Source: Xanthomonas cassavae CFBP 4642 (GTDB lineage: Bacteria; Pseudomonadota; Gammaproteobacteria; Xanthomonadales; Xanthomonadaceae). From it: 64,000 nt of DNA. The stretch is taken from the NCBI RefSeq assembly GCF_000454545.1, contig NZ_CM002139.1:3052869-3116868 (forward strand), read 5' to 3'. The notes beneath the pieces were generated by a model, which saw nothing but the letters and a program-made list of their open reading frames with translations, made no database searches and was not told where the DNA came from. Position numbers and translations under genes: made by a program. Below are positions 24,622-35,208 of the stretch, one piece after another; the first letter of the stretch is position 1; each line of letters begins with the position of its first letter.

Positions 24622-26538
24622 ATGATCGACTCCACCCGCTATCCGCGCCTGTCGCGTATCCAGACCCCCGACGACCTGCGCCGCTTCGACGAGGCCGAGC
24701 TTGGGGCCATCGCCGACGAGCTGCGCGCCTGCCTCATCGAATCGGTGGGCAAGAGCGGCGGGCACTTCGCGGCCGGGCTGGGCGTGATCGAACTCACCGT
24801 GGCCCTGCACTATCTCTACCAGACTCCGGTCGATCAGCTGGTGTGGGACGTCGGGCATCAGACCTACCCGCACAAGATCCTCACCGGCCGGCGCGACCAG
24901 ATCCATACGGTCAAGCAGAAGGACGGCGTGGCGCCGTTCCCCAAGCGCGAAGAGAGCGTCTACGACACCTTTGGCGTTGGCCATTCGTCGACCTCGATCT
25001 CGGCCGCGCTCGGCATGGCGATCGCCGCGCAGCGCAACGGCGACGACCGCAAGGTGGTGGCGGTGATCGGCGACGGTGCGATGACCGCCGGCATGGTCTA
25101 CGAGGCGCTCAACCACGCCGGCGGCATGAATCCGGAGCCGAACCTGTTGGTGATCCTCAACGACAACCGCATGTCGATCTCCGAAGCGGTGGGCGGGCTG
25201 ACCAAGATGTTGGGCCGGGCAAGCGGCAGCCGCACCCTCAACGCCATCCGCGAGGGCGGCAAGAAGATCCTCGGCGACAAGAAGAACAACCCCACCGCGC
25301 GCTTCGTGCGGCGCTGGGAAGAACACTGGAAGGGCATGTTCGTGCCGTCCACGCTGTTCGAGGAAATGGGGTTCCACTACACCGGCCCGATCGATGGCCA
25401 TGACCTACCCGGCCTGGTCGGTGCGCTGAAGACGCTCAAGACCCTCAAGGGCCCGCAGCTGCTGCACGTCATCACCACCAAGGGCAAGGGCTACGAGCTG
25501 GCCGAAGGCGACCAGATCGGCTATCACGCGGTTGGCCCGTTCGACCCGAGCAAGGGCCTGGTTGCCAAGACCGGCGCCAAGAAGCCCACTTATACCGATG
25601 TCTTCAGCGACTGGGTCTGCGACATGGCGGCCGCCGAACCCAGGCTGCTGGTGATCACCCCGGCAATGCGCGAGGGCTCGGGGCTGGTGCGCTTCAGCAA
25701 GCAATACCCGCAGCGCTACTTCGATGTGGCCATTGCCGAACAGCATGCGGTGACGCTGGCTGCCGGCATGGCGACCCAGGGCGCCAAGCCGGTGGTGGCG
25801 ATCTATTCCACCTTCCTGCAGCGCGGCTACGACCAGCTGGTGCACGACGTGGCGGTGCAAAAGCTCGACGTGCTGTTTGCGATCGACCGCGGTGGCGTGG
25901 TCGGCCCGGATGGCGCCACCCATGCCGGCAACCTGGACCTGAGCTTCCTGCGCTGCGTGCCGCACATGGTGGTGATGGCGCCGGCCGACGAAGCCGAATG
26001 CCGCCAGATGCTGAGCACCGGCGTGCACTACGCAGGCCCGGCCGCGGTGCGCTACCCGCGCGGCACCGGCCCGGGCGTGGCACTGGATGCCTCGCTGACC
26101 ACCCTGCCGATCGGCAAGGCGCAGCTGCGCCACAGCGGCACGCGTATCGCCCTGCTGGGCTTCGGCGCGTGCGTGGACGCCGCCGAGGCAGTGGGCCGCG
26201 AACTCGGCCTCACCGTGGTCAACATGCGCTTCGTCAAACCGCTGGACAAGGCGATGCTGCTGGAGCTTGCCCGGACCCACGACGGCTTCGTCACCATCGA
26301 GGACAACGTGGTGGCCGGCGGCGCGGGCTCGGGCGTGTCCGAGTTGCTCAACGCCGAGGGCGTGCTGATGGCGATGCTGCACCTGGGCCTGCCGGACAGT
26401 TTCCAGCACCATGCCAGCCGCGAAGACCTGCTGGCCGAGGCCGGCATCGACCAGGCTGGCATCCGCGCCGCCGTGCTCAAGCGCTGGCCGCACTTGATGG
26501 CCACCAGCGCGCCGACGCTGAACGCCGCGGCGGGCTGA
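24622..26538 (+). CDS. dxs: 1-deoxy-D-xylulose-5-phosphate synthase
   Basis: A 638-residue thiamine-diphosphate enzyme that makes DXP from pyruvate and glyceraldehyde-3-phosphate, the first step of the non-mevalonate isoprenoid pathway (undecaprenol carriers and quinones among its products). The ThDP motif GDGAMTAG...LNDN is intact, as are [27 protein letters not shown] and the transketolase pyrimidine domain [13 protein letters not shown]. The start is one of two adjacent ATGs (24619 or 24622); [10 protein letters not shown] is preferred. It is followed by a clear terminator. Confidence 0.96.
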
Positions 26539-26582
26539 TCCCGCCACGCTGCCACATCGCCGCCAGCGGGAATCGCAATCAA

Positions 26583-26616
26583 ACCGGCATGTACCGCGTG
26601 TACATGCCGGTTTTTT
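26583..26616 (+). terminator. Rho-independent terminator of dxs
   Basis: A perfect 12-bp stem ACCGGCATGTAC/GTACATGCCGGT with a 5-nt CGCGT loop, followed directly by six T. It lies 45 bp after the dxs stop. Confidence 0.93.
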
Positions 26617-26775
26617 CTTTACCGGATCCGCTCAGTACTTGCCGGACGGGGCCATGCACGCGACGACCTGTCGCATCCCCGCCCATCTCTGTTGCGGTCA
26701 TCGCAGCCCCGCGCCGCCCCCCCATACCGGCACCGCGCCAATACCGGGCTGACGCCGCACAGCTGCGCGCAAGAT

Positions 26776-28029
26776 CTACGCCGGCACCGCGCCGGTACGC
26801 TCAAACCCGTCCACCAGCTCCACGATGCGGCCACGCGCCTGCAGGTCGTGCAGCTCCTTCTGCAGCCGACGCACACCCGGGTCCGGCTCGGAAGACGCCA
26901 GTGCCTTGCGCAATAGCGCCGGCAGCCCATCCAGTTCCCGCAGCCACCATGCCGCACCAGCGGCCTGCAACCGCGCGGCGTGGTCGAACTGGTCGTAGTC
27001 CAGTGGATACACGATGGACGGCAGCCCGGCCGCCAGGCAGGCGTACAGGATGCCGGCACCGCCGTGGTGAACCACCAACGCATAGCGATGCAGGTACTGC
27101 GCATAGTCCACGTAGGGCAGACGCCGATAGTTGTCGCATGCCGGCTGCTGCGGCGCGGCGATATCGCCATCGCTGAAGTGGAACACCACCTCGGGAAACT
27201 GCGGCGCCAGCGCGCGCAGCACCGCATCCATGCGCTGTTTGACCCATTGCAGATGCGTGCCCAGGGTCACCAGCACATGCCGCCGTCCGGCGAGAAACTG
27301 CGGTGCCTGCACGGCTGCCGGCGGCGTGCACAATTGCGGCCCGACGAGGCGCAGCGCGGCGGGCCAGTGCTGCGCGAATTCGAACGACGGTACGCCCAAG
27401 GCCAGGATGCACTGCGGCGAATACACCGCCTCGCTGCCATCGTTTCGGTACAGCGCCGGCAGTCCACAGGCCCGCATCTGCCGCCGGTAGCAGGCATGCA
27501 AGGTGCGCTTGAACCCGCGGGTGAGCCGCCGGGCGATCGCATGCCAGGCATGCTGGCGCAGCGTGGTCGCAGGCAGCAGACCACCGAAGTAAGCCGGCGG
27601 CCCGTCGCCGGTTTCGATCACGCAGGGCGACGGCATGCTGGTCCACCAGGCGATACCCATCGCCTGCGCCGCCAGCCCGGCACTAGGCAGGGTGAAATCG
27701 GCGATCACCAGGTCCGGCCGCCGCGTGCGCCAACGCCCCTGCAGCGCATCGCCCACCTGCGCCATCAATCCCAGCGCGTCATGCAGCTGCCGGCGCAGAC
27801 GCACGGGGTGATGGCCGACCGCATGCGGCGGGTTGGCGATCTCCAGCAATACGCGGTCGGCTTGCGCATCCAGGACACCTGCACCGCGCAAGCCACATGC
27901 CTGGATACGCGCCTGCGCAGCCGGCGTGCTGATCACGTGCACGTCGTGATGCGGCGCCAGCTGCCGGGCGATGGCCAGAATCGGATGCAGATGCCCGCTG
28001 TACGGCGGGGCGACCAGATCAATGCGCAT
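26776..28029 (-). CDS. UGT-type (GT1) glycosyltransferase, last gene of the gumO operon
   Basis: A 417-residue GT-B glycosyltransferase with the N-terminal acceptor-side motif LVAPPYSGHLHPIL. The C-terminal nucleotide-sugar block VVHHGGAGILYACLAAGLPS has the HxGGxG core, followed by YPLDYDQFDHAARL. It resembles the macrolide/RhlB/MGT branch of family 1, which transfers sugars from NDP donors onto lipids or small hydrophobic acceptors. It has no signal peptide and no strong membrane helix. Its start overlaps the preceding small hydrolase-like gene by 11 nt, so it belongs to the operon led by gumO. Donor and acceptor are unknown. Confidence 0.87.
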   Translation of the reverse strand: MRIDLVAPPYSGHLHPILAIARQLAPHHDVHVISTPAAQARIQACGLRGAGVLDAQADRVLLEIANPPHAVGHHPVRLRRQLHDALGLMAQVGDALQGRWRTRRPDLVIADFTLPSAGLAAQAMGIAWWTSMPSPCVIETGDGPPAYFGGLLPATTLRQHAWHAIARRLTRGFKRTLHACYRRQMRACGLPALYRNDGSEAVYSPQCILALGVPSFEFAQHWPAALRLVGPQLCTPPAAVQAPQFLAGRRHVLVTLGTHLQWVKQRMDAVLRALAPQFPEVVFHFSDGDIAAPQQPACDNYRRLPYVDYAQYLHRYALVVHHGGAGILYACLAAGLPSIVYPLDYDQFDHAARLQAAGAAWWLRELDGLPALLRKALASSEPDPGVRRLQKELHDLQARGRIVELVDGFERTGAVPA

Positions 28030-28597
28030 GCACCCTGCCCCGCAGCGTCTGCTGGACCGTGGCGACGAAGGTCTGGCACTCGGACAGCACGTCCGCAGTG
28101 GTCAGGTAATCCATATGCCCGCAGGCCGGCGCCAGCTGCACCGGCCCGCGAAACAGCGCACGCGAAATCCAGTCGCCGCGCCCCTGCACGCTATGCAGAT
28201 GCGCGAACGTAGCCGGGTTGCGGCACACCGGGCCGTAGGCGAACACGGCCAGACGCGCGCGCAGCTCCTGCGGCAGCTGCAGCGCGGTGAGCACCTGCAA
28301 CCCGCAACTGCCGGCCAGCAGCACCGTCATCGGCGCCTGCGCGAGCAAGGCCTGCACGCTCATGCGATCGCTGTGCGGCACGCGCGCAGCGCGTGCGGCC
28401 AGGTATTGGCGCGCGTTGGAGAGGCTGGCGCGCCACAGCGCAACGCGACGGTGCGGCGCCATGTCGCTGCGGTATGGGTAATTGCATGCGATCAACTGCC
28501 GGCCATCGCCGTGCAGCTGCTGCAGAAAATCGCGTTGCTGCGCGCTCAATGCACAGCTTGCCGGATCGCTCTGCCCGGTGAGGAAGGCGATCTGCAT
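28019..28597 (-). CDS. Small alpha/beta-hydrolase-like protein of unknown function
   Basis: A 192-residue protein beginning MQIAFLTGQSDPASC. I do not recognise a named family. VLLAGSCGLQVL (Ser97/Cys98) has the shape of a nucleophile elbow, and ACGHMDYLTTADV (His161) looks like a C-terminal catalytic histidine, together suggesting a short alpha/beta-hydrolase fold. No signal peptide. It lies 10 bp after the GT2 gene and overlaps the GT1 gene by 11 nt. The frame is open for 104 codons upstream but those overlap the GT2 gene, so ATG 28597 is preferred. Confidence 0.75.
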   Translation of the reverse strand: MQIAFLTGQSDPASCALSAQQRDFLQQLHGDGRQLIACNYPYRSDMAPHRRVALWRASLSNARQYLAARAARVPHSDRMSVQALLAQAPMTVLLAGSCGLQVLTALQLPQELRARLAVFAYGPVCRNPATFAHLHSVQGRGDWISRALFRGPVQLAPACGHMDYLTTADVLSECQTFVATVQQTLRGRVHAH

Positions 28598-28607
28598 TGG
28601 CGACGCG

Positions 28608-29759
28608 TCACTGCGCACGGAAGCGACCATCTGCCAGCACGCGGTAACGCCACGTGCGCCAGGCGATGCTGCGTACGCAGGCCGCGTGCAGCAGGTGCAG
28701 CGGCTGCAGGCATTCGGCCAGGACCGACAGCAGCGGCCGATGGCGTACCGCCCCGGTGCTGCGCCACTGCACCACACACAGCAGCAGCGCGCGCAGCAGC
28801 AAGAGCGTCGCCCCGCATGCGATGGACCAGCCGCCGGGCTGCACGCAGATGCCAAGCAACAGGGCCACCAACAGCAGCGGCGGCACCCCCTGCAGCACCG
28901 AGATGGCACCGGCGATACCGATGCGCTGACGGCACAGCAGGATCAGGGCGAACAGCATCCAGCGATGCATCTGACGGGTATAGCTGGGCAGATCCGGCAT
29001 GGCGGTACGCATCGCCACCGGGGCGATGGATTGCCGGATTCGGCCACCACGTTCGCGCACCAGGGCGGCCACGGCCAGATCGTCGGTGAGCTGGTCCAGC
29101 ACGCCGCCAAGACCGCCCCAGGCACGCAGGCGTTCGGTACGCGCGGCGTAGCACATGCCGTTGATGGTCAGCGGCGCGGCGAACGGCAGCCAGCCCAGAT
29201 AGGTGAGCGCGGCATTGTTGTTGACGAACTGCGCCAGCAGCCGTCCGGCCAGGGTGTCGCTGTCGCGGTAATGCGGCAACGCGGTGACCAGGTCGGCGTG
29301 CTGCAGATCGCGCAGCAACTGCGCCAGCGCCGTTGCGCTCAACTGCGCATCGTCATCCAGCACCAGACTGATCGGCGCCTGCACCTGCGCAAGCGCCGCC
29401 TGCAGCTTCCACGCCTTCGGATTGAGATCCGGCGGCGCGGCGGGTACCTGCATGCGGGTAATGCGTACCTGCCGATACTGCGCCACAAGCGCATCGGCCA
29501 CCGTGTTGCCGGCGCGGTCGTCTGCGTCCAGCAGCCACAGGAAATGCGCCTGCGGCAGCGCCTGCAGGTTGGCGGCCAGCACCTGCTGCAACTGCGCGTC
29601 GCCTCCCAGGATGGGCTGCAGGATCGCCACATCCGCCTGGCTGGCTGTAGCGTCGCGCAATGGCGCCATGCGTGCGCGGCGCATCACCCACAGCGCCGCA
29701 ACGGTCTTGACGATGAGCAAGACCAGATAGAGCGCTGCCAGGGCCGACACTAGGCCCAT
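28608..29759 (-). CDS. Membrane GT2/GT21-like glycosyltransferase (ceramide-glucosyltransferase type)
   Basis: A 383-residue inner-membrane glycosyltransferase. One N-terminal helix (residues 2-25) precedes the GT-A catalytic domain, and hydrophobic segments follow after residue 270. The D,D,D,(Q/R)xxRW pattern of ceramide glucosyltransferase and HpnI-type enzymes is complete: LDADD at 77-81, LDDDA at 134-138, TDDLA at 225-229 and RQMHRW at 262-267. Relatives put a sugar on a membrane lipid hydroxyl. It overlaps the epimerase gene by 10 nt. Together with a second glycosyltransferase downstream it suggests a two-sugar or branched glycolipid (inference). Confidence 0.88.
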   Translation of the reverse strand: MGLVSALAALYLVLLIVKTVAALWVMRRARMAPLRDATASQADVAILQPILGGDAQLQQVLAANLQALPQAHFLWLLDADDRAGNTVADALVAQYRQVRITRMQVPAAPPDLNPKAWKLQAALAQVQAPISLVLDDDAQLSATALAQLLRDLQHADLVTALPHYRDSDTLAGRLLAQFVNNNAALTYLGWLPFAAPLTINGMCYAARTERLRAWGGLGGVLDQLTDDLAVAALVRERGGRIRQSIAPVAMRTAMPDLPSYTRQMHRWMLFALILLCRQRIGIAGAISVLQGVPPLLLVALLLGICVQPGGWSIACGATLLLLRALLLCVVQWRSTGAVRHRPLLSVLAECLQPLHLLHAACVRSIAWRTWRYRVLADGRFRAQ

Positions 29760-30709
29760 TGCGCCGCCTGCCAGCGGACGAACGCCTCCACGCCCTCGTC
29801 CAGACCGACACTGGGCGGCCCCAGATCGGCCAACATGCGCTGCGGATTGAAGGTCTTGGAATACGCGAACACGCCCACGCCGAAGCGCGTGATCGGCGGC
29901 TCGCTGCGCAACCGCAGCAAGCGATACGCGCCCTCCACCGCGCTGGCCATGCGCAGCGCCGTGCCGATGCGCACCTCACGCTGCGGCAGCGGCAAGTGCA
30001 GGCGTGCCAGCACATCCAGCAACAGCTGCTGCACGTCCACCGGCTGCGCATTGGTGAGGTTGTAGGCGCGCTGCAGCTGCGGTGCGGTGGCAGCGCGGTA
30101 GAGGTAATCGCACAGCGCATCGATGTAGATCAGATCGCCGATCACCGGCTGGGTCTGGCCGACAAACCGCGGCAGCGCGCCCTTGCGGGCCGCCGCGATC
30201 ACGCGCGGAAACAGCACCGTATCGCCCGGCCCGAACACCGCACGCGGGCGCACTACCGACCATTGGCCCGGATACGTCTCGAGCAGCGTTTCACCCAGGT
30301 ATTTGGTCTGCGCATAGGTGTTGACGAAGGCCGGGACGATCGGGCTGTCCTCGTCCAGGTCGTACTGATGTTCCTCGCGGTAGAACACCGAACTGGACGA
30401 GACATACAGTAGGCGCGGGCAACCGTGCCGCTTGCAGAAGTCGATGACGTTGGCGGTGGCATGCACGTTGTGCTGGTGGAACTGCGCGCGCGTTCCCCAC
30501 GGCGAGGCCAGCGCGGCGGCGTGGATCACCACATCCGGTTGCCAGTCCAGCGAGAACGGCTGGCTCAGATCGATGCGGTGATAGTTCGGCAGCGCGCTGG
30601 CGCGGCGGCCGATGCCGTGGATCTCCACACCGGGCTGCCCCTGGAACCGCCGCAGGAACGCGCCGCCGACAAAACCGGATGCACCGGTCACGAGAATGCG
30701 CAGGCTCAT
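29750..30709 (-). CDS. NAD-dependent epimerase/dehydratase family (extended SDR) protein
   Basis: A 319-residue extended short-chain dehydrogenase. The Rossmann motif GASGFVG is at residues 9-15, the catalytic Ser cluster VSSSSVFY near 103-110, and Y132xxxK136 in TYAQTKYLGE. Family members are sugar-nucleotide epimerases/dehydratases, or 3-beta-hydroxysteroid- or OleD-type ketone reductases; the choice is not settled by sequence. Next to a ketosynthase III, a beta-keto reductase is attractive. Its ATG overlaps the gumP stop by 4 nt. Confidence 0.87.
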   Translation of the reverse strand: MSLRILVTGASGFVGGAFLRRFQGQPGVEIHGIGRRASALPNYHRIDLSQPFSLDWQPDVVIHAAALASPWGTRAQFHQHNVHATANVIDFCKRHGCPRLLYVSSSSVFYREEHQYDLDEDSPIVPAFVNTYAQTKYLGETLLETYPGQWSVVRPRAVFGPGDTVLFPRVIAAARKGALPRFVGQTQPVIGDLIYIDALCDYLYRAATAPQLQRAYNLTNAQPVDVQQLLLDVLARLHLPLPQREVRIGTALRMASAVEGAYRLLRLRSEPPITRFGVGVFAYSKTFNPQRMLADLGPPSVGLDEGVEAFVRWQAAQWA

Positions 30710-31554
30710 CGCCACTCCGGTTGATAACGGTCGAGACTGGGCTGGCAGTGCGAAGGCAGGATGACCAGCTCCGGATGCGCCTGCGACAGGCCATGCAACT
30801 GCTGCACGGTGCGCTGGAAGGCGGACCAATCGTGCATCACCAAACGGGTGGGCCAGGCCGGCCATTGCAGCCCTGCCCAGGTTGCCGACGACCACACCGC
30901 GTCTGCGCACAGCAATACGTCGCGGTCCTGTTGATCGCGTAGCCACAGCCCCATCTGCCCCGGCACATGTCCCGGCAGCGGCACAGCGAGCACGCTGCCG
31001 TCTTCGAACAGATCGTAGGCAATGCCCAGGCCCTGCCAGGCACCGGCCAATGCACGCTGCGGCGCCTGTTCGGCGAACTGCAGGCGCCGATCGAAATCGG
31101 CCGGCAGCAGCTGTGGCAACAGCGCGCGCCGCAACCCGCCCAGGCGCGAACAGCTGCGCAGCTGCGCGTAGTCCGCGCGCAGACAGATGAAACGCGCGTT
31201 CGGCAGATCGCGCAGGCCGCCAATATGGTCGGCGTGGAAATGCGATATCAGGCACCAGGCGATCTCGTCCAGCTGCACGTCACGACGCGCCAGTTGCGCG
31301 CCCAGGGTTTCGTGCGCCGGCAGCGTCACCGGCGTGGTCCAGCGGTACAGGCGTTCCGGCCAAGGATCGGTGGCGCGAAAAAAATGCTCCGCATAGCCGG
31401 TGTCGTAGAGCAGCGCGCCGCGCTGCGGGTGCCGGATCAACACGCTCAAGGCCGGAAACTCGACCGCATGCCAATGCCCATCGGCGCGCACCATGCGCTC
31501 GCAATGCCGGCAATGGCCGATGCGCAGCAGGTCGAGGGAAACGCGCGGCGCCAT
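30706..31554 (-). CDS. gumP: GumP, metallo-beta-lactamase-fold hydrolase
   Basis: A 282-residue MBL-fold protein with the metal motif HFHADH at residues 105-110 (ISHFHADHIGG), a later His in GHVPGQMG and Asp in CADAVW. It resembles lactonase/thioesterase-like members and lacks a signal peptide. It is conventionally named GumP because it follows gumO at the end of the xanthan cluster, but it is not required for any known xanthan step. Its ATG shares a base with the gumO stop (TGATG). Confidence 0.88.
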   Translation of the reverse strand: MAPRVSLDLLRIGHCRHCERMVRADGHWHAVEFPALSVLIRHPQRGALLYDTGYAEHFFRATDPWPERLYRWTTPVTLPAHETLGAQLARRDVQLDEIAWCLISHFHADHIGGLRDLPNARFICLRADYAQLRSCSRLGGLRRALLPQLLPADFDRRLQFAEQAPQRALAGAWQGLGIAYDLFEDGSVLAVPLPGHVPGQMGLWLRDQQDRDVLLCADAVWSSATWAGLQWPAWPTRLVMHDWSAFQRTVQQLHGLSQAHPELVILPSHCQPSLDRYQPEWR

Positions 31555-32552
31555 CAGTAGCGCAACACCATGCCACCGATCGCCAGGCCGGCGCCGGTAC
31601 CGAGCAAGGCGACCAGCTCGCCGCGCTGCAGTTGCCGATCCACCACGGCGTGATGCAAGGCATGCGGCAACGAGGCGGCCACCTGGTTGCCGGTGGTCGG
31701 CAGGATGCGCACCACCTGCCCGGCAGGCAGCCCCAGCGCCCGCACCACATGATCCAGGCCGCCACCGGAGGCCTGGTGCGGCACCAGCCAGCGCAACGCA
31801 GTGGCCGCAACCCCCGCCTCGTCCAGCAGCTGCGTCCAGAACGTCGGCAGGTGACGCGCGGCAAAGCGATACGCGCCGCGGCCATCCATCCAGAACAGGC
31901 GCGAGGCCGCGGGTGCGCTTGCTTCTCCGTGCGGCGCGCGGGTGCCGCCGCCGCCGATGCGGCACAGGTCCGCGCCGTTGCCATAACTGGCAAGGCGGCT
32001 GGACAGCAACGCCGAGTCCTGCTCTGCACTGCTGCGCCCGACCACAACCGCGGCAGCGCCATCGCCGAACAATCCCGCAGTGCCGGGGTTGGCATCGTCC
32101 AGCCCGGCCGAGGCCACTTCGCTGGAGACGATCAATACGCGCCGATAGCGGCCCAGGGCCAGTGCACTGGCGGCCATGTCCAGCGCCACCAGGAAGCTCA
32201 GGCAGGTGGCATTGACATCGAATGCGGGAATGCCGGAATCGCCCAAGCCCAATGCGCGCTGGATCAGCACCGCCTGACAGGGAATCGGTTGCTCCATGAC
32301 CGCACAGGCCGAGATCAGGCAGTCGATCTGGCTGCCGTCGATGCCGGCATTGTCCAACGCCTGCCGCGCCGCGGCCGCTCCCATCGACGATGCCGTTTCG
32401 CCCTCGCCCACGTAGTGGCGGGTGACAACCCCCAGGCGTGCGGCCGTGGTTCCAGCCGGCAACTGCCAGCGCGCGTCCAGCTCGCCCGAAGTGACTTCGC
32501 GCGCCGGGACATGGCGCCCGGTGCCCAGGATGCGCAGCGGCAATGCGTTCAA
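31554..32552 (-). CDS. gumO: GumO, 3-oxoacyl-ACP synthase III (FabH/OleA-like) family
   Basis: A 332-residue thiolase-fold ketosynthase with an intact Cys-His-Asn triad: Cys117 in DVNATCLSF, His259 in VPHQASGG and Asn289 in TTGNQVAAS. Such enzymes condense acyl-CoA or acyl-ACP with a second acyl unit. Glu87 stands 30 residues before the Cys, roughly where OleA enzymes carry their glutamate (alignment not computed). No ATG is available in this frame before the conserved part, so the start is probably TTG at 32552 (MNALPLRIL) with an upstream GAGAG ribosome site. It heads a six-gene operon and is separated from gumN by about 256 bp. Confidence 0.87.
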   Translation of the reverse strand: MNALPLRILGTGRHVPAREVTSGELDARWQLPAGTTAARLGVVTRHYVGEGETASSMGAAAARQALDNAGIDGSQIDCLISACAVMEQPIPCQAVLIQRALGLGDSGIPAFDVNATCLSFLVALDMAASALALGRYRRVLIVSSEVASAGLDDANPGTAGLFGDGAAAVVVGRSSAEQDSALLSSRLASYGNGADLCRIGGGGTRAPHGEASAPAASRLFWMDGRGAYRFAARHLPTFWTQLLDEAGVAATALRWLVPHQASGGGLDHVVRALGLPAGQVVRILPTTGNQVAASLPHALHHAVVDRQLQRGELVALLGTGAGLAIGGMVLRY

Positions 32553-32808
32553 CGCGACAGCTCTCGGCAAAGAAGGCGCGCAGCATACCTTGGCAGGAAC
32601 GGCCGGCCTAACCCCCGCACGGCCAGTCGCCCTGCCCGATCGCAATGCCATCCGGGCGGCGCGCGACACGGCTGCGTCGATCGGGCACGGCAAGCACCAC
32701 TCCAAACGGCTGCAAGCACTGCACAACCCACATCGCGGGCGCACCGCAGCAGGCACTCGCGCGTGCAGACGCGCCTGGGGCGCGCGCGCCGCCCTGCGCG
32801 TCAGGCGA

Positions 32809-33825
32809 TCAAGGCGCCTCCACTTCGTAGCCGAGTGCCTGCAAGCGGGCCAGATAGCCGTCGCGCGCGGTCAAGCGACTGATCGGCAACACCGCGAAGG
32901 TGCTGCGATTGCGCTGCAATGCGGCGCTGGCGATGCCGAGCCAATGTTCGCGCATGCGCCGCTCCAGATCGTCGATGCCGCGCTTCCTGGCCGCTTCGGA
33001 ACTGGCCATCGCGCTCATGCACGCCGCCTGCGGATCTTCGCGCGGCAACTGGCGCAACGCTTCGATGTCGCCCACCGACCAGGCATTGGCGCGTTCGACC
33101 ATGGTGGGGAGATCGCGCTCCACCGTCACCAGGATGCTGCGAAAACAGGCAGTGTCGTCCATGCCGCCGGCGCGAAATTCCTTGAGCGCCTGCCGCGGGT
33201 CGGTGATCTTGTAGTCCAGCGCAGTCGGTGTCGGCTTGATACCAGCGCGCTTGGCGGCACGCTCCACCACCGACCAGATCACCGGCGAGCGGGCCAGACC
33301 CGACCGTTTCAGCGCCGCCTGGTACAACTCGCCAGCGGCCAGCATCGGGCGCTTGCGCTCCACGCCGCGATCGTTGCCGATGTAGCGGGCCTTGGCCACG
33401 CTCCAGCGCGCGTAGAGATCGGGCGGCAACACCTGCCGCAGTTCGCGGCCATCGGCGTTCTTCATCGCCTTCATCGCCGACGGCAGCAAGGTGAGTTTGC
33501 CGAAGAACCCCATGTCCGCATCGAGCTGCACGGTCGGCGCCATCAGCACCTGTTGGGACTGGCCGATGATGGTTTCCACGTCACTCGACTGCCATTGCAG
33601 GCGCTTGGGCAACGGCGACTGCGTGCCCAGGATCCACAAGACGTGGTCGCCCTTGCTGACCTTCCACAAGCCGGGCCCGGGCTGCACACCGCGCACAACC
33701 ATCGCTTCCAGATCCACCACCGGCGGTGGTACCGGTGCCGTCTTCGGCGGCAACGTGTCGCTGGCTGCCGCCAGCAGCGACACCAGCATCAGCCCCACTC
33801 CCCACCCCACTGCCCTGTGTCGCAT
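32809..33825 (-). CDS. gumN: GumN, TraB/GumN family protein
   Basis: A 338-residue exported protein (signal peptide MRHRAVGWGVGLMLVSLLAAA). It belongs to the TraB/PrgY/GumN superfamily, whose active members have a GxxH metal motif. Here the corresponding text is LGTQSPLPKR, with Ser where the His is expected, so catalysis may be altered or lost. Later text NAWSVGDIEALRQL is characteristic of the family. An alternative ATG 10 codons upstream (33855) exists; the chosen one opens the signal peptide. It lies between the cupin gene and gumO. Its role in xanthan production is unclear. Confidence 0.87.
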   Translation of the reverse strand: MRHRAVGWGVGLMLVSLLAAASDTLPPKTAPVPPPVVDLEAMVVRGVQPGPGLWKVSKGDHVLWILGTQSPLPKRLQWQSSDVETIIGQSQQVLMAPTVQLDADMGFFGKLTLLPSAMKAMKNADGRELRQVLPPDLYARWSVAKARYIGNDRGVERKRPMLAAGELYQAALKRSGLARSPVIWSVVERAAKRAGIKPTPTALDYKITDPRQALKEFRAGGMDDTACFRSILVTVERDLPTMVERANAWSVGDIEALRQLPREDPQAACMSAMASSEAARKRGIDDLERRMREHWLGIASAALQRNRSTFAVLPISRLTARDGYLARLQALGYEVEAP

Positions 33826-33920
33826 CGCGCATCGCCCCCTGTGTGAGGCGGACATTACGTGAAGCCGGCACCCGCCGCGTTAGGGAAGCGTTGCACCGGG
33901 CCAGGAGCGCATGACTGACA

Positions 33921-34382
33921 TCAGCCCGGGGCCAGCGTTGCCAGATGCGCTGCCAACGGCGACGCGGGATCGAGGAGCGCAAACCCTTCCCAGACGAAGC
34001 CCGGCGAGACCGTGCATCCCACCAGGGTGAAGTCGCCCAGCGAACGTGCCGCCTGCCACTGCCCTGCGGGAACCACCTGCATCGGCTCGCCGCGTTCGGC
34101 CGCGTCCAGGATCAGCCGCTGCAGTTGTCCGCTGGCTTCGTCATAGAGCAGCAACTCCAGGGCGTCGCCCTGCTGCCACTGCCAGGTTTCCTCGGCATCG
34201 ACGCGGTGCCAGGCACTGCATTCGCCTGCAGCCAGCAGAAACCGGATAGCCGTCAGCGCCGGACGGACCCGTCCGTCGTCGATCACCTGACGGGCAGAGG
34301 CGTAAACGCGACGGAAATGCCCGCCTTCCGGATGCGGGGCCAGGTCGAGCGAGCGGATCAGGGCAGCGGCAGTGGGATGCAT
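33921..34382 (-). CDS. Cupin (DUF985-type) protein
   Basis: A 153-residue single-domain cupin. The DUF985 hallmarks HPEGGHFRRVYAS, SAWHRVDAEETWQWQQGD and GCTVSPGFVWEGFALL are all present. It is cytoplasmic and of unknown function; family members resemble sugar-phosphate isomerase-type cupins. It sits inside the gum region between gumM and gumN on the same strand, 34 bp after gumM, so it is likely co-transcribed although it is not a named gum gene. Confidence 0.88.
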   Translation of the reverse strand: MHPTAAALIRSLDLAPHPEGGHFRRVYASARQVIDDGRVRPALTAIRFLLAAGECSAWHRVDAEETWQWQQGDALELLLYDEASGQLQRLILDAAERGEPMQVVPAGQWQAARSLGDFTLVGCTVSPGFVWEGFALLDPASPLAAHLATLAPG

Positions 34383-34416
34383 GCCCGCATGCTAGGGCAG
34401 CAGACGGCGCCGTGCA

Positions 34417-35208
34417 TCAAGGTAGATGCTTGCCCGCGCGCAGGCAGGTGCGGAAAAACACCAGCAAGTCCCAGCTATAACGCTTGAGCAGGCGACGCGG
34501 CTCGTTGAGCAACCGGTACATCCACTCCATGTGCAGTCGGCGCACCCAGTCCGGCGCGCGCCGGGCAGTGCCGGACAGGAAGTCTAGCAGCGCACCGACG
34601 CCGAACACCAACGGGACACGCAGCGCGTGGCCGTGGTCCAGAATCCAGCGCTCCTGCAGGGGATTGCCGAACGCCACCAGCAGCACATCGGCGCCTGACC
34701 GATTGATGCGTTCGGCCAGGCCTTCGCCGGCGGCGGCAAACTCGCCATAGCCATCGCACATACCGACCACCTGCTGCCCCAACGTTCCGGTCAAGGTTGC
34801 CGCCGCCGTCGCGCCGACACCCGGACGCCCGCCCAACAGGAAGAACTTCAACGGCTGCGCGCTTTGCCGGCACAGGTATGGGATCAGGTCGGTACCGTTG
34901 AGGTTTCCGGCGAAGCGGCGGCCATGAATCAACCGTGCCGCCAGATCCATTCCAATTCCATCGTTGACGATGCGCACGCTGGGTTCACGCATGCGCATCC
35001 GCAACGCCTGGCACTGCACGACGAAATTGGTATTGGCAAAGAACACCCGGCGCCGTTGCTGCGCCGCCAACGCATGGAACAGGTCCAACGCGAAGGCTTC
35101 CTGGGTCGTGGACAGCACCGGAAAGCCGCCCAGCGGAATCACCACGCCCGGCGGCGCCTCGACGGCGGCGGCAGTTGTGTCCACATGCATGCGCTGGCCC
35201 TGCATCAT
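34417..35208 (-). CDS. gumM: GumM, xanthan beta-1,4-glucosyltransferase (GT26)
   Basis: A 263-residue WecG/TagA/CpsF-family transferase. It adds the second glucose to undecaprenyl-diphospho-glucose, forming the cellobiose backbone unit at the cytoplasmic face. Family blocks NDGIGMDLAARL, LNGTDLIPYLC, GGRPGVG and VAFGNPLQERWI are clear. Two adjacent ATGs mark the start (35208 preferred), 4 bp after the gumL stop. The C-terminal basic/aromatic tail (WMYRLLNEPRRLLKRYSWD) is typical and probably contacts the membrane. Confidence 0.95.
   Translation of the reverse strand: MMQGQRMHVDTTAAAVEAPPGVVIPLGGFPVLSTTQEAFALDLFHALAAQQRRRVFFANTNFVVQCQALRMRMREPSVRIVNDGIGMDLAARLIHGRRFAGNLNGTDLIPYLCRQSAQPLKFFLLGGRPGVGATAAATLTGTLGQQVVGMCDGYGEFAAAGEGLAERINRSGADVLLVAFGNPLQERWILDHGHALRVPLVFGVGALLDFLSGTARRAPDWVRRLHMEWMYRLLNEPRRLLKRYSWDLLVFFRTCLRAGKHLP

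What the first reader, a model, noticed from the sequence alone, without database searches (positions are those of the whole stretch)
26776..32552. Six-gene gumO operon looks like an uncharacterised glycolipid pathway attached to the xanthan cluster
Six genes run head to tail with junctions of +10 to -11 nt: ketosynthase III with intact triad (Cys117, His259, Asn289), MBL-fold hydrolase, extended SDR (Y132xxxK136), GT21-like membrane glycosyltransferase, a small alpha/beta-hydrolase-like protein and a UGT-type glycosyltransferase. None of these fits a known xanthan step. A ketosynthase plus ketoreductase plus hydrolase plus two glycosyltransferases would suit Claisen condensation of two acyl chains, reduction, and glycosylation of the resulting hydroxyl. 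gumO and gumP carry gum names only because of position.
Basis: partly seen in the sequence, partly recalled or inferred. Interest (0 to 1): 0.78.

Follow-up and report, generated by a model that had tools for sequence, protein, structure and literature searches.

The report
Widespread glycolipid-type operon beside xanthan genes
Six genes sitting next to the xanthan-gum genes of a Xanthomonas, two of them misnamed as gum genes, are a self-contained kit that probably builds a sugar-coated two-tailed lipid, and the same kit turns up in the same gene order in distantly related bacteria away from any xanthan genes.

Summary
Six intact genes (26776-32552, minus strand, junctions -1, -4, -10, +10, -11) encode a ketosynthase III, a metallo-beta-lactamase-fold hydrolase, an extended SDR, a GT21-type glycosyltransferase, a minimal alpha/beta-hydrolase and a GT1 glycosyltransferase. 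They are not a xanthan step. All six recur in 33 of 45 non-Xanthomonas loci found with the GT21 profile, 31 in the same order on one strand, in several phyla. gumM was not found in 7 of 7 cassette-bearing genomes tested, and four Xanthomonas without gumO keep gumM, a gumN gene or remnant, and dxs. Outside Xanthomonadales 24 of 29 loci add a TIGR02304 adenylate-forming enzyme; four Enterobacterales loci also add a PAP2 protein, a fatty-acid hydroxylase and desaturases, which points to a lipid product. GumO groups with the chain-joining ketosynthases MxnB/CorB rather than FabH and lacks OleA's Glu. The SDR is nearest OleD. The GT21 profile's only solved relative is ceramide glucosyltransferase. 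Best reading: two acyl chains are joined, released, reduced and glycosylated. Independent glycolipid-type cassette: likely. Two-chain chemistry: plausible, unproven. My nine paper searches showed no description.

The parts
31554..32552 (-). gumO: ketosynthase III of the MxnB/CorB-related lineage, Cys117-His259-Asn289, Ile90 at the position of FabH Phe / OleA Glu
30706..31554 (-). gumP: metallo-beta-lactamase-fold hydrolase, AHL-lactonase-like, with HxHxDH, a further His and an Asp invariant in 37 of 37 aligned relatives; proposed thioesterase/lactonase step
29750..30709 (-). extended SDR; best NCBIfam matches are OleD-type 2-alkyl-3-oxoalkanoate reductases (142 bits, below the 580-bit cut-off); Y132xxxK136
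28608..29759 (-). glycosyltransferase, Pfam GT21; DDD, DD and RW invariant in 44 of 44; only solved relatives found are ceramide glucosyltransferase
28019..28597 (-). minimal alpha/beta-hydrolase, no Pfam/NCBIfam match; invariant Ser97, Asp142, His161 in 44 of 44
26776..28029 (-). GT1 (UGT-type) glycosyltransferase; best solved relative annotated 'Rhamnosyltransferase'
32582..32587 (-). TATGCT inside a block conserved upstream of gumO (12 of 13 aligned Xanthomonas spacers) while the rest of the gumN-gumO spacer diverges; candidate promoter -10 element (inference)
   Evidence: a sigma-70 consensus scan found no promoter in the region
26581..26613 (+). 14-pair inverted repeat with a T-run, between GT1 and the convergent dxs gene; listed as terminator-like on the dxs strand only; that it also stops this operon is inference
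   Evidence: 3 such sites found in the region, 4.2 expected by chance

Best explanation
The six genes are a self-contained cassette for a glycosylated long-chain lipid, present or absent as a block between gumN and dxs and not part of xanthan synthesis. Proposed order of work: (1) GumO joins two activated acyl chains by a Claisen condensation, as its relatives MxnB/CorB do, giving a 2-alkyl-3-oxoacyl thioester; (2) the GumP MBL hydrolase frees it from its carrier or opens a lactone; (3) the OleD-like SDR reduces the 3-oxo group to a hydroxyl; (4) the ceramide-glucosyltransferase-like GT21 enzyme puts the first sugar on a hydroxyl of the lipid at the membrane; (5) the GT1 enzyme adds a second sugar; (6) the small alpha/beta-hydrolase edits an ester or thioester. 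Shown here: gene content, intact motifs, family and clade placement, conserved clustering, independence from gum. Inferred: every reaction, the substrates, the number of chains (two rather than one) and the order of steps.
For: Same six genes in 33 of 45 non-Xanthomonas loci, 31 in order on one strand (all 45 were found through their GT21 gene). In 24 of 25 named Xanthomonas loci all six match over more than 93% of length without stops. KS tree: the 8 FabH rows form one clade (98/95), and GumO-like rows share a clade with MxnB/CorB (41 rows, 96/92). Nearest solved KS are MxnB (237 bits) and CorB (230) against 179 for the best FabH. At residue 90 the 39 GumO-like and type C rows have Ile/Leu/Met, the 8 FabH rows Phe, the own OleA Glu, MxnB/CorB Val. 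MxnB condenses two long chains (passages of PMC5724707). The SDR is OleD-like in the window and in 3 of 3 distant cassettes scanned beside it. The GT21 profile finds only ceramide glucosyltransferase in the PDB, E 9e-21. The GT1 best hit is a 'Rhamnosyltransferase', E 3e-19. A PAP2 protein, a fatty-acid hydroxylase and two desaturases sit in the operon of L134 and L161, with the same labels in L145 and L153. gumM was not found in 7 of 7 tested genomes with the cassette. Four gumM-bearing Xanthomonas lack it.
Against: No product, substrate or transcript is known. The KS triad also suits ordinary malonyl condensation. GumO lacks the Glu that OleA and PpyS use, so an unactivated acyl chain may not be deprotonated; a beta-ketoacyl partner would be needed. 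The genome's fourth, unrelated KSIII also has Ile at residue 90, so that position is not diagnostic. MxnB/CorB make pyrones, not hydroxy acids. The SDR is far below the OleD cut-off and also resembles HpnA (67 bits, named a sugar epimerase). No ACP gene is among the six. The own genome has no TIGR02304 match, so the pathway may be shortened. The tree holds long branches (OleA, fourth KSIII), and PMC4578411 places MxnB/CorB inside the FabH clade.
Confidence: 0.45

Rival explanations
1. Single-chain version: GumO primes or elongates one fatty acyl chain with malonyl-ACP (FabH-like chemistry), MBL releases, SDR reduces, and the two transferases make a rhamnolipid-like 3-hydroxyacid glycoside.
For: The Cys-His-Asn triad is complete. 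The GT1 enzyme's nearest solved relative is annotated Rhamnosyltransferase. No OleA-type Glu.
Against: GumO falls outside the FabH clade with chain-joining MxnB/CorB and lacks the FabH Phe; it is below the TIGR00747 fabH cut-off (214 against 292.1 bits). The SDR's best families are 2-alkyl-3-oxo reductases.
Confidence: 0.25
2. Pyrone or butenolide-type two-chain natural product that is then reduced and glycosylated; a secreted signal rather than a membrane lipid.
For: Closest characterised ketosynthases make alpha-pyrones. The GumP profile is closest to AHL lactonases.
Against: A ceramide-glucosyltransferase-like enzyme and fatty-acid hydroxylase/desaturase partners in four Enterobacterales loci suit a membrane lipid better.
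Confidence: 0.15
3. Sphingolipid-like route: the cassette decorates a ceramide or other lipid made elsewhere, with KS/MBL/SDR making only an acyl or sugar precursor.
For: GT21 similarity to ceramide glucosyltransferase. Two Stenotrophomonas loci show only SDR-GT21-ABH-GT1 (L124, L132; L132 begins only 2.3 kb upstream).
Against: KS, MBL and SDR accompany the transferases in 33 of 45 loci. No amino-acid-condensing gene is among the six. I did not search the genome for serine palmitoyltransferase.
Confidence: 0.1
4. Accessory xanthan genes (acyl or sugar decoration of the polymer or of its lipid carrier).
For: Position beside gumN in 25 of 25 named Xanthomonas loci, and the gum names.
Against: gumM was not found in 7 of 7 genomes tested that carry the six-gene cassette. 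Xanthomonas with gumM exist without it (4 of 4). PMC2585010 says no role in xanthan was demonstrated and PMC4468381 calls it questionable (passages).
Confidence: 0.05

Closest known systems
OleABCD head-to-head olefin / beta-lactone pathway
   Same: A thiolase-superfamily condensing enzyme plus an OleD-like SDR; 24 of 45 non-Xanthomonas loci also have an adenylate-forming enzyme and 37 of 45 the small alpha/beta-hydrolase
   Different: The KS is not OleA (no Glu; the genome has a separate OleA); the SDR is far below the OleD cut-off; the adenylating enzyme is TIGR02304, not shown to be OleC; two glycosyltransferases and an MBL are added
MxnB / CorB chain-joining ketosynthases (myxopyronin, corallopyronin)
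   Same: Nearest solved relatives of GumO; same CHN triad and neither FabH's Phe nor OleA's Glu at residue 90
   Different: Those act on assembly-line carrier proteins and release pyrones; no PKS gene is among the six here, and a hydrolase plus a reductase follow
Ceramide glucosyltransferase / HpnI (GT21)
   Same: PF13506 above cut-off; DDD, DD and RW motifs kept; only PDB relatives found are ceramide glucosyltransferase
   Different: Below the HpnI cut-off (88 against 310 bits); acceptor unknown
Rhamnolipid pathway (RhlA/RhlB, recalled)
   Same: alpha/beta-hydrolase-fold enzyme next to a GT1 enzyme; nearest solved GT1 annotated Rhamnosyltransferase
   Different: Dedicated ketosynthase, reductase and GT21 enzyme; RhlA kinship not tested

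Membership tests
FabH (housekeeping KAS III) | TIGR00747 curated cut-off 292.1 bits | tested here: not met
   214 bits
FabH (housekeeping KAS III) | inside the FabH clade, with FabH's Phe at residue 90 | tested here: not met
   FabH rows split off 98/95; GumO has Ile90
OleA | catalytic Glu contributed across the dimer | tested here: not met
   Ile90 in GumO, Glu in the genome's own OleA
MxnB/CorB two-chain condensing ketosynthases | shared clade and active-site pattern | tested here: met
   41-row clade (96/92) that includes MxnB/CorB; CHN triad; aliphatic residue 90; a published tree differs
MxnB/CorB two-chain condensing ketosynthases | joins two carrier-bound acyl chains | not testable with these tools
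   needs an enzyme assay
OleD 2-alkyl-3-oxoalkanoate reductase | NF042422/NF042423 cut-off 580 bits | tested here: not met
   142 bits, although these are the top-ranked families
GT21 (Pfam PF13506) | curated cut-off 21.7 bits; D-rich motifs and (Q/R)xxRW (motif name recalled) | tested here: met
   117.8 bits; DDD 135-137, DD 226-227, RW 266-267 in 44 of 44
HpnI (hopanoid glycosyltransferase) | TIGR03472 cut-off 310 bits | tested here: not met
   88 bits
alpha/beta-hydrolase fold | nucleophile-elbow Ser, then Asp, then His on the fold | tested here: met
xanthan biosynthesis genes | co-inherited with the gum locus | tested here: not met
   cassette without a gumM match in 7 of 7 genomes; gumM without gumO in 4 of 4
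xanthan biosynthesis genes | needed for xanthan production | not testable with these tools
   needs a deletion; papers seen report no demonstrated role

The most novel reading that the evidence does not exclude
A so far undescribed, phylum-crossing class of bacterial ceramide-like glycolipids made without sphingosine chemistry: a chain-joining ketosynthase fuses two acyl chains, an OleD-like reductase makes the hydroxyl, and a ceramide-glucosyltransferase relative plus a GT1 enzyme glycosylate it. In some Enterobacterales a hydroxylase and desaturases tailor the chains as in sphingolipids. Xanthomonas keeps a reduced six-gene form mislabelled as gumO/gumP.
Probability: 0.3. Interest if true: 0.85.

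Novelty: new variant of a known kind. Interest (0 to 1): 0.62.

Why it matters
Two genes long carried as gumO and gumP would be removed from the xanthan story and placed in a new lipid pathway. Because the cassette recurs in several phyla, including genera such as Luteimonas and Nocardioides that are not known to me as pathogens, its product can be sought where mutants are safe to make. If the chains are joined as proposed, it adds a reduced and glycosylated outcome to the small set of chain-joining ketosynthases, and a bacterial home for ceramide-glucosyltransferase-like enzymes. It also bears on a published correlation of gumO/gumP with the host group of Xanthomonas, to which there seem to be exceptions.

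Tried and rejected
Rejected: GumO as the fatty-acid-initiating FabH (a separate FabH-clade enzyme and OleA exist). Rejected: part of xanthan synthesis. Looked for and not found: plasmid copies (GT21 protein, 72,556 plasmid records, E 1e-20, no match) and E. coli copies of the Buttiauxella SDR-GT1 half (L142:9027-12889, no match). Considered: the adenylate-forming gene lies elsewhere in this genome; no TIGR02304 match at E 0.001. A sigma-70 scan of 26300-34500 found no promoter (0 found, 0.7 expected) and no excess of terminators (3 found, 4.2 expected). The KS profile search of 369 class genomes hit 244 at 1e-70, so that threshold catches FabH: only five matches (own included) exceed 340 bits, the next is 280, and six of the lower ones tested fall in the FabH clade. 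Pfam gave nothing for the type B genes L043:9997-11250 and L043:8885-10033 nor for the TIGR02304 proteins (5 of 5). The protein search (2617 proteins at 1e-40, best 120 listed) was used only to see what the close relatives are named. Literature: nine searches; I saw listings, and passages or parts of seven papers. None described this cassette or a gumO/gumP mutant. Most listed papers were not opened and the library lacks most subscription journals, so absence is weak. The MBL row is void (frame off by one base) and was replaced. Not done: tree of the SDR or GT21 family, search for serine palmitoyltransferase or hopanoid genes, structure of the GT21 enzyme.
Full report
What is there. On the minus strand of the window, after gumM (34417-35205), a cupin gene (33921-34382) and gumN (32809-33855), six open genes follow: KSIII 31554-32552, MBL-fold hydrolase 30706-31554, SDR 29750-30709, GT21-like 28608-29759, a small protein 28019-28597 and GT1 26776-28029. 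The convergent dxs gene ends at 26538. Junctions are -1, -4, -10, +10 and -11 nt. The gumN-KS gap is 256 nt. Against 8 of the 25 named Xanthomonas loci the median dN/dS is KS 0.16, MBL 0.09, SDR 0.10, GT21 0.27, hydrolase 0.26, GT1 0.15, compared with gumM 0.06 and gumN 0.10, so all six look to be under purifying selection.

Enzyme by enzyme. GumO: the genome has four PF08541 ketosynthases. One is OleA (676-685 bits to OleA entries; that 3fk5/3row are OleA is recalled); one falls in the FabH clade; one is another KSIII. GumO is below the fabH cut-off (214 against 292.1) and below that of its best family PRK07204 (359.5 against 402). Its nearest solved relatives are MxnB and CorB. In a 51-row tree the 8 FabH rows form one clade (98/95), and GumO-like rows, type C rows and MxnB/CorB form another (41 rows, 96/92). 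At residue 90, 39 of 39 GumO-like and type C rows have Ile, Leu or Met, 8 of 8 FabH rows Phe, the own OleA Glu, and MxnB and CorB Val; the own fourth KSIII also has Ile, so the position alone is not diagnostic. PMC5724707 (passages) reports that MxnB must bind and condense two long chains and has a second tunnel. PMC4578411 (parts 1 and 2 of 3 read) notes that MxnB/CorB lack the Glu and places them in the FabH clade, which differs from my tree.

GumP has the HxHxDH, His and Asp metal residues invariant in 37 of 37 aligned relatives, and the profile is closest to AHL lactonases. The SDR's top families are OleD-type 2-alkyl-3-oxoalkanoate reductases (142 bits, cut-off 580), ahead of HpnA (67); its best solved relative is a sterol-4-alpha-carboxylate 3-dehydrogenase. 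The GT21 protein exceeds the Pfam GT21 cut-off, keeps its motifs in 44 of 44, and its profile finds only ceramide glucosyltransferase among solved structures (2 distinct sequences, E 9e-21). The small protein matches no Pfam or NCBIfam family but folds confidently as a minimal alpha/beta-hydrolase with Ser97, Asp142 and His161 invariant in 44 of 44. The GT1 protein's best solved relative is annotated Rhamnosyltransferase.

The cassette elsewhere. A scan of the collection of 84,980 species genomes with two peptide patterns from the GT21 profile gave 70 loci. It is not a census: cassettes whose GT21 lacks both patterns, and clusters without GT21, are missed. All 25 Xanthomonas loci hold the cassette between gumN and dxs; in 24 of 25 all six genes match over more than 93% without stops, and the exception (L107) shows split matches in KS, MBL, gumN and dxs alike, which suggests sequencing errors. 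Of the 45 other loci, 33 hold all six genes, 31 of them in the Xanthomonas order on one strand (extra genes allowed between), and 24 hold a TIGR02304 enzyme: 24 of the 29 outside Xanthomonadales and 0 of the 16 that the record titles place within it (Lysobacterales/Lysobacteraceae taken as the same order, recalled). Seven of 7 such proteins scanned exceed that family's cut-off. Carriers of all six include Luteimonas, Rhodoferax, Pandoraea, Undibacterium, Rheinheimera, Yersinia similis, Buttiauxella, Cedecea, Nocardioides, Pimelobacter, Histidinibacterium, and Acidobacteria and Gemmatimonadetes MAGs. Misses, 12 of 45: two Stenotrophomonas loci show only SDR-GT21-ABH-GT1 (L124, L132); the Leptospiraceae and Ewingella loci (L154, L137) lack hydrolase and GT1; the Klebsiella locus (L161) lacks the hydrolase; five Chloroflexota-type loci, some on short contigs (L159, L162-L165), show no match to SDR, hydrolase or GT1; two (L140, L160) are cut by short contigs. 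Some of these loci are the same genomes as earlier G-handle loci (for example L144 and L036).

In four of 45 loci (L134, L145, L153, L161, all Enterobacterales) a PAP2 protein, a fatty-acid hydroxylase and desaturase genes lie in the operon (Pfam for L134 and L161). L137 and L142, also Enterobacterales, lack them. A related core, KS-SDR-MBL, is in 10 of 10 family genomes of a second type (L038-L047); in L043 an ATP-grasp-like protein (PRK06849 relative, 316 bits, cut-off 406), an unknown and a Rieske protein follow ('ATP-grasp' is recalled). Sampling: 45 of 247 family genomes hold a GumO relative at 1e-60; in 369 class genomes the GT21 profile hits 2 at 1e-40, the own and one of another family of the order.

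Independence from gum. In the genus 31 of 35 genomes have GumO at 1e-50; of these one (G175) is decayed and two matches are partial (G092 at a contig end, G628). The four without it all have gumM; there the gumN gene or its remnant is followed by dxs with a gap of about 0.1-0.9 kb and no match to the six genes. gumM has no match at E 0.001 in 9 of 10 other genomes tested, namely all 7 that carry the six-gene cassette and 2 of 3 with the KS-SDR-MBL core; the tenth, G153, has it. Papers (passages read): no xanthan role of gumO/gumP has been demonstrated (PMC2585010); it is questionable (PMC4468381); they are missing from Xanthomonas of monocots (PMC5554336). Two exceptions to that pattern: the X. 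vasicola locus L117 has all six genes intact, and X. fragariae lacks gumN, gumO and gumP (PMC4408752). That the first infects monocots and the second a eudicot is recalled.

Transcription. Most of the gumN-gumO spacer diverges, but the last stretch before gumO is conserved in 13 aligned spacers (the window and 12 of the 25 named loci), with TATGCT in 12 of 13. No consensus sigma-70 site was found. A separate transcript is therefore likely but not shown.

How it most likely works. GumO joins two acyl chains, GumP releases the product, the SDR makes the hydroxyl, GT21 and GT1 add sugars, and the small hydrolase edits. The lipid nature of the product rests on the GT21 kinship and on the fatty-acid genes of the Enterobacterales operons; the two-chain step rests on clade membership and the residue-90 pattern. 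I put about 0.8 on 'independent lipid-glycoside cassette' and 0.45 on the full scheme.

Novelty. None of the papers listed or read in nine searches describes the cassette, as far as listings and passages show, with the limits told under Tried and rejected. All enzyme families are known, so I call it a new variant of a known kind.

Noticed in passing
L134:831-12917 (Yersinia similis); also L145, L153, L161: Enterobacterales operons join the cassette with a second SDR, a TIGR02304 enzyme, a PAP2 protein, a fatty-acid hydroxylase and desaturases.
   Followed up: partly
L038-L047 (KS-SDR-MBL); further genes examined in L043:7875-14083: A related cluster KS-SDR-MBL in other Xanthomonadaceae-family genomes, followed in L043 by a PRK06849 relative, an unknown protein and a Rieske protein.
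   Followed up: partly
L051-L054: A third arrangement, KS-SDR-MBL with other neighbours; its KS group with MxnB/CorB (100/98).
   Followed up: no
L155:6874-15363: A six-gene cassette sits next to the PRK06849-like and unknown genes of the other cluster type, on the opposite strand.
   Followed up: no
L117 (Xanthomonas vasicola): Intact cassette in a species recalled to infect monocots, against the published eudicot-only pattern of gumO/gumP.
   Followed up: partly
L094 (G175, a Xanthomonas): Decayed copy of the cassette: broken KS, no MBL found, fragments of SDR and GT21; gumM, gumN and dxs remain.
   Followed up: partly
own genome, L002: A further KSIII, neither FabH nor OleA; best solved match 4efi; function unknown.
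   Followed up: no
L167 and L168 (alphaproteobacteria): The cassette is split into two halves on opposite strands: SDR-GT21-ABH-GT1 and KS-MBL-TIGR02304.
   Followed up: no
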